A stretch of 64,000 bases of DNA from Streptomyces albireticuli (GCF_021228125.1 NZ_JAJQQS010000002.1:124001-188000); one strand, 5' to 3'. Shown: positions 2,010 through 7,976, counted from the stretch's first letter. The notes: generated by a model from the sequence alone, not told the origin. Numbers and translations are program-made.

Positions 2010-3380
2010 CTACGGGCGCCAGCGCACGCGGTGCTCGGACCAGAAGTCCCACGTGGTGAGCATTGCCTCCCAGCCGTCCGGGAACTTCACCGTCACCCCC
2101 AGCCGCACCGGATCCGTCGAAGGATGCTCGTCCAGCAGTTCCTCGACGCCCGCCCGGCACACCACCACGCACGCGTGCCGGTGCCGCGAGGCCAGGACGC
2201 ACAGGCGGCCCGTCTCCAGGTGGAAGGCCGTCGCGTCCGGGCGGCCGGAGAGGGGGTGGAGGACCACCGTGACGTCGAACTCCCGGCCCTGGAGGCGGTT
2301 GGCCGTGTCGACCGTGACGCCGTCCACGCCGAGCTCGGTCAGGGCCGCCCGTACGGCCGCCGCCTGGTCGCGGTGGGCCGTGCCCACGGCGATCCGGTCG
2401 GCCGTGAGCGGCACCGGATCGGGGGACAGCTCACTCGTCGCCGCGCCGCCGCGGTCCAGCATCCGGCGGACGACCAGGGCCACCGCCCGTACCGCCTCCG
2501 GGTCCGTGCGCGGCGTCCTGCGCGCGGGCAGTTCCAGCAGGCCCCAGCCCGACGCGGCCGCCTCGTCCAGCACCCGGTCCGGGCCCGAGCCGTCGGACGG
2601 CACGCCGAAGGCCAGACGGCGGTCGCCGTGGCCCGTGCCGCTGCGGAACGGGGTGTACGGGTAGAAGGCCGCCGACACCAGCGGCGCGGCGGACGCCGGC
2701 AGCCGCCAGGAGACCGGCAGCCGGTGCTGCGGCAGGCCCGGGTTGTGCGCGAGCAGGGTGCTGACCGCGCTCGCCGACGGGTCGTACGACAGGCCGGCCC
2801 ACTGCGCCGCGCCGTCGGGCCCCACCACGCTGAACGGGTCGAGCTGCCCCGGGTCGCCCACGAACAGCGCCCGCTCGAACAGCCCCGCCACGGCCAGCAG
2901 GGCGTCCGACCGCATCTGGTACGCCTCGTCGACGATCGCGTGCCCCCACGGCTCCGCGACCTTGGTGTGCGCCCACTTCGCCGCCGTGGAGACCACGACG
3001 TCGAGCCCCGCGAGGTCCGCGGCCTTCGTGGACGTGACCACCGACGGCAGCGCGTCCAGCGCCCGGTCGTACGGGCGCGCCTCGCTGCTGTGCAGCCGGC
3101 CCACCGGCAGCTCCGGGTCCTTCGCGGCCAGCCGCAGCACCAGGTCGTCGACCTGGGCGTTGGTCTGCGCGACGACCATCAGCGGGCGGCCCGCGGCGGC
3201 CAGCTCGCGCGCGGCCCGGACCACGAGCGTCGACTTGCCGGCGCCCGGCGGTGAGTCGACGACGACGCCGCGATGCGGGCCGCGCAGGGTGTCGCGGAGG
3301 ATCGCGTCCGTCGCGGCGGCGGCCGCGGCGGACGGGTCGAAGGCGTCGGAGGCGCGGGTGCCCGCCGCCCGGACGATCAC
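2010..3380 (-). CDS. Superfamily 1 DNA/RNA helicase (Upf1/Dna2-like AAA ATPase)
   Basis: A 456-residue P-loop protein with a compact SF1 core. Walker A is PPGAGKST (residues 44-51), a Q-T-N segment follows at 72-74, Walker B is DEAYQM (151-156), motif III is VGDPGQLDPF, and the C-terminal half carries TANRLQGREFD and an ASRHRHACVV motif V/VI region. This order fits SF1 helicases of the Upf1/Dna2 type, with no obvious accessory domains. The start is GTG at 3380. It is the last gene of a minus-strand cassette, 61 bp after the 535-residue unknown, with a RecB/Cas4-type nuclease upstream. Helicase plus nuclease suggests DNA processing (repair or defence); the substrate is unknown. Confidence 0.85.
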   Translation of the reverse strand: MIVRAAGTRASDAFDPSAAAAAATDAILRDTLRGPHRGVVVDSPPGAGKSTLVVRAARELAAAGRPLMVVAQTNAQVDDLVLRLAAKDPELPVGRLHSSEARPYDRALDALPSVVTSTKAADLAGLDVVVSTAAKWAHTKVAEPWGHAIVDEAYQMRSDALLAVAGLFERALFVGDPGQLDPFSVVGPDGAAQWAGLSYDPSASAVSTLLAHNPGLPQHRLPVSWRLPASAAPLVSAAFYPYTPFRSGTGHGDRRLAFGVPSDGSGPDRVLDEAAASGWGLLELPARRTPRTDPEAVRAVALVVRRMLDRGGAATSELSPDPVPLTADRIAVGTAHRDQAAAVRAALTELGVDGVTVDTANRLQGREFDVTVVLHPLSGRPDATAFHLETGRLCVLASRHRHACVVVCRAGVEELLDEHPSTDPVRLGVTVKFPDGWEAMLTTWDFWSEHRVRWRP

Positions 3381-3441
3381 GGCCGCACCCCGTACGGGCG
3401 TGCCTCGCTCGGGCGTACGGCGGGAGCCGCTCCGGTCGTGT

Positions 3442-5049
3442 TCACAGCAGGTCCTCCGCGGTCAGCGGGTCGGGGGCGTCGGCGGCCTCGCCCGGCGGGC
3501 CGCCGTGGGTCCAGGGCGTCCGCTCGGGATCGGGCAGCTCGGGGCCGCCGCGCGGCGCGTGCTCGAAGAGCGTCCAGCAGACGCGGTCGCCCTTCTCCGG
3601 CACGGACCCCTCGTCGGGCACCTTGCCACGCCCCATGCCGCCCGTCAGGCGGACCGTCAGCGCGCCGCCGCCGTCCGGGGCGTGGCCGACGAACTCCGCC
3701 GTCTGCGCCCTGCCGTCCGGCAGCACCCGGTGCACCTTCACGCCTTCCGTCAGCAGCGGGCCGTCGTCCGTGAGCACCGTCACCAGCGGGCGTGGGCGCG
3801 GCACCTTCGCCTCCGAGTACTCCATCACCACCTCGGTGACCTCCCCCGCGAACGCCTCGCCCGCCAGCCTCCGGCCCGCCATGACCAGCGGGTCGTCCAG
3901 CGCCTCCTGCGCCTCCAGCCGGGCGTGCGCCGTCTCCCGCGCCGCGAGCTTGCGGGCCGCGGTCACCGCGTCGTCCCGCCGGGGCTGCGGCGGCTCACCG
4001 GCCGCCACCCGGTCCCGGTGCGAGGTGTACGACCAGCGGTCGCGCTTCCACCGCTCGGCCACCCGCTCGCCCTCCGGGAGCGCGCGCAGCAGGTCGACGC
4101 CCTGCCACACGGCGTCCCACGTCGGGCGGAGCTGTGACTCCAGGAGGGCGCGGATCTCCCGCTCGGCGCGGTGCAGCGGGGCCTGCGCGGCTTGCGCGGC
4201 TTGCGCGGCCTGCGCGGCCTCCGGGGCGGCCGCGGCCTCCGCACGGGCGCGGTCGTAGCGCGCCGTCGCCGGGGCCAGCCGCCTGTTGTCGAACACCGGG
4301 TCCGTGGCCGGGCCGGCGGGCGGGCACAGCAGCAGGCCCTCCGCGTCGCGCGCCAGCTCCGCGCGGAGGGCCGCCTCCGCGCCCGTCGTCCCCGGCGGGG
4401 GCGCGAGCCAGCCGAGCAGCGCCCCCAGGTGCTGGTCCTCCACGCCGCTCTGGCCCGTCGCCCAGTGGCGGGCGAGCACCTGCGTCATCGGCAGCAGCAG
4501 CGACGAACCGGGCAGCCGGGCACGCTCCCCGAAGTGCGTCAGCCAGCGGCCCAGCAGCGGGACGCGCGGCGGCGCCGGGTACGGGCTGTCGGGGTCCTGC
4601 TCGGCCGTCCGCCGGAAGCGCATGGACCGCCCGAGCAGCCGGACGTACTCCACGCCCGCCGCGCTCGGCACCAGCAACTGCGGGGCGTCGGCGCACAGCT
4701 CGACCTCGACCGGGACCTTCTTGCCCGTCTCCGGGTCGGTCTCCTTCCGCTGCTCCCGCTCGACGTCGTCGGCGAACCCCTCGACGTACGGCAGCACGGC
4801 GTCGGCCAGCTCCGCGAGGAACGCGAACCGCAGGTCCCGGTCGCGGGGCTGCGGCACGACCAGCAGCAGCGGGGCGTCCCGCTCCGTACCGACCATCGCC
4901 CCCAGCGGGGCACCGGCCTCACCGGCGGTGGTCAGCGGCACGAAGACCATCGGGCGCTCGGCCAGATGCCGGTGGCGCACGGTCGCCAGGGGGCGCGCCC
5001 GGCCTTCCCGGACGGCCTCCATCCGGGCGAGTGCGGTGATCAGGGACAC
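3442..5049 (-). CDS. Conserved hypothetical protein of helicase/nuclease cassette
   Basis: A 535-residue protein I cannot assign to a family. It has no P-loop, no signal peptide and no membrane segment. The N-terminal half is a hydrophobic-core globular region. Near residue 285 is a short AAQ tripeptide repeat, then a charged, probably helical stretch to about 420, a possible small beta-rich domain (about 420-505) and an acidic Pro-rich tail. The start is GTG at 5049, overlapping the nuclease gene's stop by 10 nt, which indicates translational coupling. Its invariable companions here are a nuclease and a helicase, so it may be the scaffold or specificity subunit of that complex; that is inference from position only. 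Confidence 0.75.
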   Translation of the reverse strand: MSLITALARMEAVREGRARPLATVRHRHLAERPMVFVPLTTAGEAGAPLGAMVGTERDAPLLLVVPQPRDRDLRFAFLAELADAVLPYVEGFADDVEREQRKETDPETGKKVPVEVELCADAPQLLVPSAAGVEYVRLLGRSMRFRRTAEQDPDSPYPAPPRVPLLGRWLTHFGERARLPGSSLLLPMTQVLARHWATGQSGVEDQHLGALLGWLAPPPGTTGAEAALRAELARDAEGLLLCPPAGPATDPVFDNRRLAPATARYDRARAEAAAAPEAAQAAQAAQAAQAPLHRAEREIRALLESQLRPTWDAVWQGVDLLRALPEGERVAERWKRDRWSYTSHRDRVAAGEPPQPRRDDAVTAARKLAARETAHARLEAQEALDDPLVMAGRRLAGEAFAGEVTEVVMEYSEAKVPRPRPLVTVLTDDGPLLTEGVKVHRVLPDGRAQTAEFVGHAPDGGGALTVRLTGGMGRGKVPDEGSVPEKGDRVCWTLFEHAPRGGPELPDPERTPWTHGGPPGEAADAPDPLTAEDLL

Positions 5050-6755
5050 GGGCTCTCCTCCTCGGCCGCCCCCGCGGTCGTCCGGACCCGGCTCCCGGAC
5101 GCGGACAGTACTTCCAGCGCCTCCGCGCGCAGGGCCGCCGCGCGGCGCAGGGCGGCGACGGCGGGATCCGCCGGATCGCCCTCCTCGCCCCGGGCGGCGG
5201 CGAGCACCGCCCCCACCGTGGCCAGGCCGCCCAGCTCACCGCGGACCCCGCGGCCCAGCGTCTCCACCGCGTCCGCGGCTCGCGACCGGGCCCGGCAGTG
5301 GAAGGCCAGCTCGCACGCGGCGAGGCAGTCCGGGGCGTACGCCGCCGGGGCCGCCTCGACCGCGGCCGCCAGCTCCGCCGCGGGCCGGGTCGCCGTCCGG
5401 CCGTCGTCGGCGAGGCGAAGGTCGAAGGTGGTGCCCTCGGGCAGGGCGGCGGCGATGTCCTCGACGCGCGTCAGCCGGGCGAGCTGCCGCCGGGTCGTGG
5501 CGATCTGCTTGCGCACGTCGACGAGCTCGGCGTCGGGAAGATTGGAGAAGTCCTTGGGACAGACGAGCAGCACCCGCTCCCGCACGGACGCTCCGGCCGC
5601 GCGGCCGACCCGGGAAGCGCCGTCGGCCGGCGGAGCGACCGGGGCCTCCGCCACGGGGCCGCCGTCGGAAGCGGGTGGCAGGGGTGCGGCAGCAGCGCCT
5701 TCGTCTTGCGGGGTGTGGGCCGGGGCCGCCGTGGTGCCGGTCGGGGGAGTGTCGTCGGCGCCCTGTGCGGCTTCCGCTGTGCGGCCGGTGTCCGGAGTGG
5801 GTGGCAGGTGTGCGGCATCGCCTTCGTCGTGCGGGGCGTGGGCCGGGAGCGCCCTGGTACCGGCTGGGGGAGTGTCGTCGGCGCCCTGTGCGGCTTCCGC
5901 TGTGCGGCCGGTGTCCGGAGTGGGTGGCAGGTGTGCGGCATCGCCTTCGTCGTACGCCCCTCGGGTCGGCGGCACCGTCCCGTCGGCGGGCGGTGACGGG
6001 TGAGTGTCGCCCCCGGGAGTGCCCGGCGAGGCCGTCTCGCCGTCCCCCGGGCCCCCGCCCATCCGAGCCGCCACCCCCTCCAGGGCGAGCGCGTACACCG
6101 CCGCCTGCCGGGCCGCCGCGCCGACCTTGCCCGGGTCCGCCGCGCCGTCGATCATCGGGAAGGACTTGATCTCCACGATCGTCCAGTCGCCGTCCGGGTG
6201 GACGACGATCGCGTCCGGCTCCAGATAGGCGGGGGTGCCCGCGACCTCCAGGGCCAGCAGGGGGTGGTCCAGGACCGTCCACCGTCCGGCGGCCGTGGCC
6301 TCGCGCAGGGCCAGGGCCGTGCGGGCCGTGCGGCCCTCGGGGCCGGCCGCCGACAGGTCGGGGGTGAGGGGCGGGAACGCGGGGCCGGGCGCGGGGGAGT
6401 CGTCGCGCAGCCGGTCGTGGAGCAGGCGGACCAGGGCCTCGCCGCCGTCCGCCTTGACCCGTGCCTCGAAGACGTTGCCCCGCGCTATGGCGAACTGCGA
6501 CTGCCCGTGCGTGGCCGGGGCGCCGAGGGCGCGGGCCAGCGCGCCCTTGTCCACCCCGGCGCCGTCGAGCAGGACCCGACGGCGGCAGCCGGGGTTGGCG
6601 GCCAGGGCCGCCAGGGCGCGCGCGTCGAGCGGACGCGGCGCCGCGGCGGGGCCGCGCAGTTCAGCGAGCCGCTGCCGCAGCGTCGTCGGCGAGGCTGTCG
6701 CCGGCCTCGTCGCGGGACTGCTGTCGGGGGATGTGCTCTCGGGGAATGTGGTCAC
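5040..6755 (-). CDS. RecB/Cas4-type PD-(D/E)XK nuclease with probable Fe-S cluster
   Basis: Predicted 571 residues from GTG at 6755 (VTTFPES...). RecB-family nuclease motifs occur in the right order: GNVFEAR (93-99), D181 in LEPDAIVV, E195-I-K197 in IVEIKSF, and Q217-AAV-Y221, the QxxxY motif. Four cysteines match the Cas4/AddB iron-sulfur plan: C57 before the nuclease core, and C477, C481, C487 (C-x3-C-x5-C) near the C-terminus. Between core and cysteine cluster sits a low-complexity insertion of about 160 residues containing a tandem repeat. The gene overlaps the end of the PAP2-type gene by 95 nt and the next gene by 10 nt. A DNA end-processing enzyme is likely; the start is uncertain. Confidence 0.8.
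   Translation of the reverse strand: MTTFPESTSPDSSPATRPATASPTTLRQRLAELRGPAAAPRPLDARALAALAANPGCRRRVLLDGAGVDKGALARALGAPATHGQSQFAIARGNVFEARVKADGGEALVRLLHDRLRDDSPAPGPAFPPLTPDLSAAGPEGRTARTALALREATAAGRWTVLDHPLLALEVAGTPAYLEPDAIVVHPDGDWTIVEIKSFPMIDGAADPGKVGAAARQAAVYALALEGVAARMGGGPGDGETASPGTPGGDTHPSPPADGTVPPTRGAYDEGDAAHLPPTPDTGRTAEAAQGADDTPPAGTRALPAHAPHDEGDAAHLPPTPDTGRTAEAAQGADDTPPTGTTAAPAHTPQDEGAAAAPLPPASDGGPVAEAPVAPPADGASRVGRAAGASVRERVLLVCPKDFSNLPDAELVDVRKQIATTRRQLARLTRVEDIAAALPEGTTFDLRLADDGRTATRPAAELAAAVEAAPAAYAPDCLAACELAFHCRARSRAADAVETLGRGVRGELGGLATVGAVLAAARGEEGDPADPAVAALRRAAALRAEALEVLSASGSRVRTTAGAAEEESPCP
5646..5955. repeat. 123-bp tandem repeat inside the nuclease gene
   Basis: About two and a half copies of a 123-bp (41-codon) unit lie in tandem. 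The block at 5761 recurs nearly identically at 5884, and a diverged copy precedes it. It encodes a Pro/Thr/Asp/Gly-rich linker (for example HLPPTPDTGRTAEAAQGADD, twice). The unit keeps frame, so copy number can change without inactivating the protein. Confidence 0.85.
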
Positions 6756-7662
6756 CGGTGCCCGCCTCGCGAGATGTCTCCGGCGCCCCCGGCCGGCCGG
6801 CTCCGGCCCCGGAACCGGAGACCGCCGCCCGGGAAGGCGCTGTACCCGCCGAAGTCTCGCATCCGGCACCGACATTCGCGGAAGTCCCGGCCGTTTCCTG
6901 ACGCGAGGCGGCGGAGAAACGTTCCCGTACGCGGTCGACCAGGCGCAGCGCCGGCTTGGCCAGCAGCAGCCCGACGCCCATGACGGCGGCGCCGGCCACG
7001 GCGTCCAGGAAGTAGTGGTTGGCGGTGCCCATCACTATCAGCGTGATCGCCGCCGGGTAGACCACGCCGGCGATCTTCGCCCAGGTCGTGCGCCCGTAGC
7101 GCCACATCACGACGCCGCACCACAGGGCCCAGCCGACGTGCAGGCTCGGCATCGCGGCGTACTGGTTGGTCATGCCGCCGAGGCCGCGCGGGGCGCTGGC
7201 GTCGCCGCCCCACCAGCCGTAGGAGCCGTACTGGGCCATCGTGTCGACGAATCCGTACGAGGCGTCCAGCAGCCGGGGCGGGCAGGTGGGCAGCAGGGTG
7301 AAGCCGATGAGGCCGATGAGGGTGGAGATCATCAGCCAGCTGCGCAGGAAGCGGTAGTCGCGCGGGCGCCGCCGGAAGGCCCACACGAGGATCGCGGGCG
7401 TCAGGATGTAGTGCAGGGAGGCGTAGGCGAAGTCGGCGGGTATGCCGAGGGACGCGTGCTCCGTGAACAGCCGGTTGAGCGGGTGTTCGAAATTTATTCG
7501 GAAGGTCTTCTCGAGGTCGAGGATCGCCAGACCGTGGTCGATCGCCGGCTGGACATTGCCGCGGACCAGCAGTCGGCCCGCCGAGTACACCGCGTACACC
7601 ACGGCTATCAGCGGCAGCTCGGTCCACCAGCGCGGCCGCTTCCCCAGTGGTGTGCGGTACAT
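6661..7662 (-). CDS. PAP2-superfamily membrane phosphatase/phosphotransferase
   Basis: A polytopic membrane protein (about six segments) of the PAP2_3/inositol-phosphotransferase type. The phosphatase signature is spread over CPPRLL, AAMPSLHVGWA and ANHYFLDAV, giving the Arg, the catalytic PSLH His and the H-x3-D His/Asp. Such enzymes act on lipid phosphates or transfer phosphoinositol head groups at the membrane. ATG at 7662 (MYRTPLGKRPRWW) is chosen because GGAGAG lies seven bases upstream; ATGs at 7677 and 7704 are alternatives without a ribosome site. The C-terminal 80 residues are low-complexity, and their DNA also carries the start of the downstream nuclease gene in another frame. Confidence 0.85.
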   Translation of the reverse strand: MYRTPLGKRPRWWTELPLIAVVYAVYSAGRLLVRGNVQPAIDHGLAILDLEKTFRINFEHPLNRLFTEHASLGIPADFAYASLHYILTPAILVWAFRRRPRDYRFLRSWLMISTLIGLIGFTLLPTCPPRLLDASYGFVDTMAQYGSYGWWGGDASAPRGLGGMTNQYAAMPSLHVGWALWCGVVMWRYGRTTWAKIAGVVYPAAITLIVMGTANHYFLDAVAGAAVMGVGLLLAKPALRLVDRVRERFSAASRQETAGTSANVGAGCETSAGTAPSRAAVSGSGAGAGRPGAPETSREAGTGDHIPREHIPRQQSRDEAGDSLADDAAAAAR

Positions 7663-7976
7663 CCGGACGCTCTCCATGTGTTCAGGCGGCCAATAAGCGC
7701 GCATGCAACCGTACGGTGTACGCCACATCGCGCGCACACCGCCCCGCGGCTTACCGGAAACCCCGAGTTCCCCTGCCGTTCCGCCCTGGTCACGATGCGT
7801 GAGGGCCGGAGGGGGCGGGTCAGGAGGGGAGACGCCCGGATTGACCTGCGGGTTGCCTGTGACAGGTGTGAGCGATGATGGAAAAGCGAACAGATCGTCG
7901 CCGCCGGTGCCTTGCCGGTCCGGATGGCGATCTGTAGTGAAAATCACCGAAATCTTCTGAAGGGTCTGGGTCCTCC
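7663..7976. other. Divergent intergenic region, no gene seen
   Basis: About 314 bp separate the minus-strand PAP2-type gene from the plus-strand histidine phosphatase. It should contain both promoters. Possible N-terminal extensions of the PAP2 gene (to 7704 or beyond) fall here. I see no convincing operator, small gene or RNA. Confidence 0.5.

What the first reader, a model, noticed from the sequence alone, without database searches (positions are those of the whole stretch)
2010..6755. Three-gene helicase / unknown / Cas4-like nuclease cassette
Seen: three same-strand genes, with 10-nt overlap between nuclease and unknown and 61 bp between unknown and helicase. They encode an SF1 helicase, a 535-residue protein with no recognisable domain, and a PD-(D/E)XK nuclease with QxxxY and a four-Cys pattern. 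Known: helicase plus Fe-S RecB-fold nuclease is the logic of AddAB, Dna2, Cas4 and several anti-phage systems. Inference: an uncharacterised end-processing, repair or defence complex whose middle protein is the unknown partner. The HTH/DUF6879 accessory module next to it is compatible with a variable locus, but the genes have normal chromosomal composition, so a conserved housekeeping repair role is equally plausible.
Basis: partly seen in the sequence, partly recalled or inferred. Interest (0 to 1): 0.7.

Follow-up and report, generated by a model that had tools for sequence, protein, structure and literature searches.

The report
Three-piece Dna2-like DNA helicase-nuclease
Three neighbouring genes, almost always kept together in Streptomyces and found in several other bacterial phyla, look like one DNA-unwinding and DNA-cutting machine split over three proteins; it has not been described in the libraries or papers searched, and relatives of it sit in anti-virus gene islands or beside Mre11-Rad50-type break sensors.

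Summary
In detail: three same-strand genes at the stated coordinates, with the stated 10-nt overlap, 61-nt gap, helicase motifs, QxxxY and four Cys. It is not chance. In 85 loci with room, nuclease and unknown gene are adjacent in 85 and unknown and helicase in 81, mostly overlapping. All three proteins occur in the same 16 of 296 actinobacterial genomes. The unknown protein matches no Pfam, NCBIfam or PADLOC family. Its C-terminal half is a stalk plus beta-barrel that aligns with the segment just before the helicase core in single-chain RecB-nuclease/helicase proteins, the segment the stand-alone helicase lacks. Best reading: a three-subunit, Dna2-like end-processing complex, collinear with Dna2. 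In Streptomyces the copy is core (236/247 genomes, fixed position), so the DUF6879/HTH module is unrelated. Elsewhere the trio lies in defence islands in four phyla. Accessory Streptomyces and Nocardia copies carry a fourth gene, often SbcC-SbcD, sometimes Wadjet: a bacterial Mre11-Rad50-Dna2-like layout. Core copy: probably DNA-end repair. Accessory copies: probably defence. Activity is untested; the barrel assignment is moderate evidence.

The parts
5040..6755 (-). NUC: PD-(D/E)XK nuclease of the RecB/Cas4/Dna2 type with predicted Fe-S cluster (Cys57...Cys477-x3-Cys481-x5-Cys487)
   Evidence: catalytic and Cys residues conserved in 95-96 of 96 relatives; AF2 model of a relative matches Cas4 SSO0001, MGME1, Dna2, RecE, AdnA, RecB in PDB
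6585..6587 (-). NUC Cys57, N-terminal Fe-S ligand
   Evidence: invariant 96/96
6165..6215 (-). NUC catalytic block D181 ... E195-x-K197
6093..6107 (-). NUC Q217-x3-Y221
   Evidence: invariant 96/96
5295..5327 (-). NUC Cys477, Cys481, Cys487, C-terminal Fe-S ligands
   Evidence: invariant 96/96
5586..6047 (-). low-complexity Pro/Ala-rich insert in NUC, with 123-bp tandem repeat at 5673-5953; not conserved
3442..5049 (-). MID: 535-aa protein of no known family; N-terminal alpha/beta domain, long helices, C-terminal beta-barrel
3571..3969 (-). MID residues about 361-493: stalk helix plus beta-barrel, proposed helicase domain 1B
   Evidence: AF2; Foldseek best hit Upf1, Dna2 also listed; hhalign to the segment before the helicase core of RecB nuclease-helicase fusions, 0/200 shuffles as high
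3493..3516 (-). MID C-terminal tail motif PWTHGGPP (WLTH in lineage B)
2010..3380 (-). HEL: SF1B (Upf1/Dna2-type) helicase core, domains 1A and 2A only
   Evidence: best PDB sequence match DNA2 E=1.5e-14; aligns from its N-terminus with the 1A-2A part of fusion proteins
3228..3254 (-). HEL Walker A (SPPGAGKST)
2916..2930 (-). HEL motif II DEAYQ

Best explanation
The three genes encode one ATP-driven DNA helicase-nuclease laid out like eukaryotic Dna2 but split over three chains in the same order: a RecB/Cas4-type Fe-S nuclease (NUC), a bridging protein that carries the stalk and beta-barrel 1B (MID), and the 1A-2A motor (HEL). Proposed action: HEL, completed in trans by the 1B barrel of MID, loads on a single strand at a DNA end or break, translocates 5'-3' and feeds the strand to NUC, which cuts it; the N-terminal domain of MID docks NUC to the motor. 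In Streptomyces this is a core DNA-end-processing enzyme. Elsewhere the same machine is deployed against invading DNA, in defence islands, or behind an SbcC-SbcD (Mre11-Rad50) end sensor plus a fourth protein. Shown here: co-inheritance, synteny, conserved active-site and Fe-S residues, fold class of NUC, helicase class of HEL, contexts. Supported but not proven: MID carries 1B. Inferred: physical complex, 5'-3' polarity, DNA as substrate, biological role.
For: NUC-MID adjacency 85/85, MID-HEL 81/85, overlapping in 75 and 55 loci, typically by 4 or 10 nt. Same 16 of 296 actinobacterial genomes for NUC and MID; HEL orthologues (>=226 bits, next best 88) in those 16 plus one with a MID-HEL pair. 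Where the operon is broken (Micromonosporaceae) HEL is kept elsewhere. Three Streptomyces without MID also lack NUC. HEL best PDB relative is DNA2; NUC model resembles Cas4, MGME1, Dna2 and AdnA. In single-chain RecB-nuclease/RNase_H_2/helicase proteins NUC, MID C-terminus and HEL align in order to 135-337, 596-748 and 792-1168; MID score 38.7 against at most 27.3 in 200 column shuffles, 17.1 reversed, 17.8 for an unrelated profile. AF2 of MID: helices then barrel; Foldseek best hit Upf1. NUC, MID and HEL trees split the same two lineages.
Against: No biochemistry or complex model. The MID-1B link is moderate: hhalign pairwise E 0.0019 and probability 14%, seen only with the broad alignment and not with the narrow one (score 18.9); Foldseek E 0.013 with generic barrels (flavohaemoglobin, V-ATPase, EF-Tu) close behind. 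The NUC model is of a relative, from 9 sequences, best hit E 1.2e-3. One divergent MID-HEL pair lacks a detectable NUC, and one accessory subtype has lost the catalytic E and K, so nuclease action is not always needed.
Confidence: 0.6

Rival explanations
1. Housekeeping repair only: the trio is a RecBCD/AdnAB-like or lesion-processing enzyme everywhere, and its presence in defence islands is incidental hitch-hiking.
For: 236 of 247 Streptomyces carry it at a fixed place beside PAP2, histidine-phosphatase and regulator genes with no defence genes noticed; lineage C copies sit among ordinary genes such as cysteine synthase and murI (read by eye).
Against: Five lineage-B loci from four phyla have known or candidate defence genes next door; accessory Streptomyces copies adjoin Wadjet; 11 of 247 Streptomyces lack it.
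Confidence: 0.3
2. Dedicated defence system in all lineages, including the core Streptomyces copy, as a constitutive anti-phage or anti-plasmid nuclease.
For: Defence-island and Wadjet contexts; patchy presence outside Streptomycetaceae (4 other genera of 192).
Against: Near-universal, syntenic, vertically inherited core copy in Streptomyces is unusual for a defence system.
Confidence: 0.25
3. MID is an independent enzyme or adaptor with a generic barrel; the trio works together but MID is not the missing 1B domain of HEL.
For: Foldseek lists many unrelated barrels; narrow MID profile does not find the fusion proteins; the N-terminal half has no relative found.
Against: Broad profile, shuffle test and exact collinear position before the 1A domain; HEL lacks any 1B of its own.
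Confidence: 0.3
4. The complex acts on RNA, like Upf1, not on DNA.
For: HEL belongs to the Upf1/Dna2/IGHMBP2 class that includes RNA helicases; neighbouring Schlafen-type genes in two loci.
Against: Best relative is DNA2; NUC is of the DNA exonuclease class; SbcC-SbcD and Wadjet partners act on DNA.
Confidence: 0.07

Closest known systems
Eukaryotic Dna2 nuclease-helicase (PDB 5ean)
   Same: RecB/Cas4-type Fe-S nuclease with one N-terminal and three C-terminal Cys, stalk-barrel 1B, SF1B 1A-2A motor, same linear order; HEL's best PDB sequence match, NUC's fifth structural match
   Different: three separate chains; MID has an extra N-terminal domain with no known relative; MID-1B similarity is weak
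TM0106-type single-chain RecB nuclease / RNase_H_2 / AAA_11-AAA_12 helicase proteins of Actinobacteria
   Same: all three trio profiles align to them in order; their helicases are the closest non-orthologous relatives of HEL
   Different: single chain; carry an RNase_H_2 domain with no counterpart found in MID; very low similarity of NUC and MID
AdnAB / AddAB / RecBCD
   Same: helicase plus RecB-family nuclease acting on DNA ends; AddB shares the Fe-S nuclease layout; AdnA, RecB and AddB among NUC structural matches
   Different: UvrD-type SF1A motors fused to the nuclease; trio motor is SF1B and separate
Archaeal Mre11-Rad50-HerA-NurA operon (PMC12977600)
   Same: Mre11-Rad50 genes next to a motor and a nuclease thought to process ends or foreign DNA; same logic as accessory SbcC-SbcD-CC-NUC-MID-HEL loci
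   Different: HerA hexameric translocase and NurA nuclease are unrelated to HEL and NUC
UvrD-Cas4 fusions and other Cas4-like helicase pairs (PMC5704561)
   Same: Cas4-like nuclease with SF1 helicase linked to defence
   Different: UvrD-type motor in one chain; the words Streptomyces and actinobacteria do not occur in that paper's text

Membership tests
Dna2 | SF1B helicase core of the Dna2/Upf1 group | tested here: met
   HEL profile: DNA2 best PDB match E=1.5e-14, then SMUBP-2, Upf1
Dna2 | RecB/Cas4-type nuclease with four-Cys Fe-S site | tested here: met
   D, E-x-K, QxxxY and four Cys conserved in 95-96 of 96; Foldseek to Cas4, MGME1, Dna2; cluster itself not shown
Dna2 | stalk-barrel domain 1B before 1A | tested here: inconclusive
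   on MID, not HEL; shuffle test positive, structural match weak
Dna2 | one polypeptide with nuclease and helicase | tested here: not met
   three separate genes in all loci; no fusion seen among the loci examined
AddAB/AdnAB/RecBCD | UvrD-type (SF1A) motor fused to RecB nuclease | tested here: not met
   HEL is AAA_11/AAA_12 type; nuclease on a separate chain
Cas4 | match to Cas_Cas4/PDDEXK_1 models or CRISPR context | tested here: not met
   NUC hits no Pfam model above gathering score; no cas genes noticed in the contexts read; resemblance is structural only
TM0106-type nuclease-helicase | single chain with RNase_H_2 domain | tested here: not met
   no RNase_H_2 hit in MID or NUC
Known PADLOC defence systems | full-length match of a signature protein | tested here: not met
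   NUC and MID no hit; HEL only partial helicase-domain hits to MkoA/MkoC/Hhe and others

The most novel reading that the evidence does not exclude
Actinobacteria have a bacterial counterpart of the eukaryotic Mre11-Rad50 plus Dna2 end-resection pathway: SbcC-SbcD senses an end, a new fourth protein (CC) hands it to a three-subunit Dna2, and mobile copies of this six-gene set are an anti-phage or anti-plasmid system that cooperates with Wadjet, while the core trio in Streptomyces processes the organism's own DNA ends.
Probability: 0.3. Interest if true: 0.88.

Novelty: new variant of a known kind. Interest (0 to 1): 0.72.

Why it matters
Dna2-type enzymes are usually discussed as single-chain proteins, best known from eukaryotes (from general knowledge); a three-subunit bacterial version with the 1B domain on a separate chain would show how such motors assemble and give a genetically tractable model in Streptomyces. 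If the accessory copies work as proposed, a new defence system uses Mre11-Rad50 and Dna2 logic, linking DNA-end resection with immunity. It would also name three conserved proteins that reference annotation calls hypothetical protein, hypothetical protein and AAA family ATPase.

Tried and rejected
MID as member of a known family: none in Pfam, NCBIfam, PADLOC or PDB sequences. HTH/DUF6879 as part of the locus: rejected, not conserved. Phage origin: no match to a lineage-B MID in the phage collection at protein level, no confirmed relative in viral contigs. MID N-terminal half as a degenerate RNase_H_2 domain: hhalign 19.7, not above shuffles. PDB sequence search of NUC returned only engineered repeat proteins by low-complexity match, not used. 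G145 and G116 weak MID hits: no trio genes in the flanking stretch, treated as chance. A first genome-contig query failed because the alignment was too diverse. Natural gene fusions of the three proteins were looked for and not found among the loci fetched. Paper searches found no description of the trio; the library lacks most subscription journals.

Full report
WHAT IS THERE. The minus strand of the window holds HEL 2010-3380, MID 3442-5049 and NUC 5040-6755, read in the order NUC, MID, HEL. HEL matches AAA_11, AAA_12 and Viral_helicase1 above the Pfam gathering scores; MID and NUC match nothing in Pfam, NCBIfam or PADLOC. The nuclease also carries a private low-complexity insert (residues about 237-390) with a 123-bp tandem repeat.

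MORE THAN CHANCE. In an even sample of 296 actinobacterial genomes, NUC and MID occur in the same 16 genomes and HEL orthologues in those 16 plus G281, which has a divergent MID-HEL pair. HEL scores are bimodal: 226 bits or more for orthologues, 88 or less for the rest. Fisher p is about 1e-26 by genome and about 5e-10 by genus, 5 of 192; relatedness inflates the first figure. Among fetched loci with room, NUC-MID are adjacent in 85/85 and MID-HEL in 81/85; the commonest junctions are 10-nt or 4-nt overlaps at NUC-MID and 4-nt overlaps at MID-HEL. Three of the four exceptions are Micromonosporaceae; in two of them the helicase was found elsewhere in the genome and in the Actinoplanes locus it lies about 5 kb away on the other strand. 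The fourth has a broken MID. Many of these loci are from related Streptomyces and are not independent, but the rule also holds for Nocardia, Actinomadura, Arthrobacter, Acidimicrobiia, Planctomycetales, Acidobacteriota and Gemmatimonadota.

WHAT THE PROTEINS ARE. NUC: catalytic D, E-x-K, Q and Y and the Cas4/AddB/Dna2 pattern of one N-terminal and three C-terminal Cys are conserved in 95-96 of 96 sequences. An AF2 model of the relative L058 (pLDDT 77.9) has Cas4 SSO0001, MGME1, Dna2, RecE, AdnA and RecB among its PDB matches (best E 1.2e-3, so the class is clear from the consistency of the list rather than from any single hit). HEL: the profile finds DNA2 best (E 1.5e-14), then SMUBP-2 and Upf1. 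It begins directly at domain 1A and has no 1B. MID: AF2 (pLDDT 84.6) shows an N-terminal alpha/beta domain, long helices 281-322 and 361-395 and a barrel 399-493. Foldseek's best hit among 350,542 chains is Upf1 (E 0.013), with Dna2 at rank 31, but generic barrels stand close behind.

THE SPLIT-DNA2 MODEL. The nearest non-orthologous helicases are the C-terminal parts of 1100-1300-aa proteins with PDDEXK_1, RNase_H_2 and AAA_11/AAA_12 domains. Profile-profile alignment puts NUC on their nuclease (135-337), MID 322-459 on 596-748 and HEL on 792-1168. The MID match, directly before domain 1A, scores 38.7; 200 column shuffles reach at most 27.3, the reversed profile 17.1, an unrelated profile 17.8. 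The C-terminal half alone gives 36.1, the N-terminal half 19.7. Limits: the pairwise E-value is 0.0019, and a narrow MID profile (15 sequences of lineage A only) does not find it (18.9). I therefore treat the 1B assignment as moderately supported. It explains why HEL lacks 1B, why the gene order equals the domain order of Dna2 and why the three genes are hardly ever separated.

LINEAGES AND CONTEXT. NUC, MID and HEL trees agree on two deep lineages and mostly on the subgroups (the HEL tree is a quick one). Lineage A1 is core in Streptomyces: 236/247 genomes have MID, in a conserved neighbourhood with PAP2, histidine-phosphatase, regulator and spermidine-synthase-like genes (these names were read by eye). 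The DUF6879/HTH genes do not travel with it. Lineage B sits beside defence genes: ZorA/ZorB, a PDC-S37-like helicase, HEC-05, SIR2 and PDC-S68 (L079); HEC-05 and PDC-S37 (L075); type III methyltransferase and a UvrD-PDDEXK protein (L078); SIR2-STAND and SLFN-type (L080); SLFN-type/PDC-S41 (L081). McrBC next to L081 was recognised by eye only. L077 is a lineage-B locus without such neighbours. Lineage C (freshwater Acidimicrobiia) has a fourth gene downstream, an RNase_H_2 protein in L098.

ACCESSORY COPIES. Sixteen of 247 Streptomyces carry an extra, divergent trio scoring above 600 bits with the accessory profile. All 22 accessory-type loci examined have a fourth gene, CC (about 280 aa, predicted coiled coil by eye plus a conserved LRRDEERS...RPYY block, no Pfam match), directly upstream of NUC; 12 of 22 also have intact divergent SbcC and SbcD and two more have remnants. 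Three adjoin Wadjet JetABC(D). CC also precedes the trio in Nocardia and Actinomadura but is absent from six core-only Streptomyces genomes, the window's included. In the subtype without SbcCD, six of six readable nucleases have EIK changed to LIR, so they are probably inactive, whereas the SbcCD-linked copies keep EIK.

MECHANISM AND ROLE. Best-supported mechanism: HEL with the MID barrel forms the motor, NUC cuts the strand that is fed to it. Polarity 5'-3' and DNA as substrate follow from the SF1B/Dna2 class and the partners, and are inferred. For the core Streptomyces copy I favour processing of the cell's own DNA ends (inference); for lineage B and the accessory copies, defence. The closest operon logic in the literature is archaeal Mre11-Rad50-HerA-NurA (PMC12977600). 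No description of the trio was found in the papers searched.

Noticed in passing
L061, L199, L201, L202, L203, L208: Accessory trio copies without SbcCD have a nuclease whose catalytic EIK is changed to LIR (probably dead); SbcCD-linked copies all keep EIK.
   Followed up: partly
L174 5731-8825 (G281 contig 2, 571 kb): A very divergent MID-HEL pair without detectable nuclease, between a C5 methyltransferase-like gene and a ribonucleotide-reductase-like gene on a large second contig.
   Followed up: partly
window 5673-5953: 123-bp tandem repeat (2.3 copies) encoding a Pro/Ala-rich insert in the nuclease, absent from relatives.
   Followed up: partly
window 6661-7947: A PAP2-like phosphatase ORF on the same strand overlaps the annotated start of the nuclease by about 95 nt and is a conserved neighbour in Streptomyces; the true nuclease start may be further downstream.
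   Followed up: partly
L057 5059-6753, L095 13801-15705, L098 5567-7513: In freshwater Acidimicrobiia a further RecB-like/RNase_H_2 gene directly follows or overlaps the helicase gene (RNase_H_2 confirmed for L098).
   Followed up: partly
L079 2724-9731: ZorA- and ZorB-like genes followed by a 1549-aa SF1 helicase with a MTES_1575 nuclease domain, directly upstream of the trio: possibly a Zorya variant.
   Followed up: no
G421 C1:21669 and C1:8509452; G387 C1:6766: Accessory trio copies close to chromosome ends, in G421 a matching copy near each end, which suggests terminal inverted repeats.
   Followed up: no
L122 9092-9925 and relatives: CC, a conserved family of about 280 aa upstream of the nuclease with coiled-coil-like N-terminus and no Pfam match.
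   Followed up: partly
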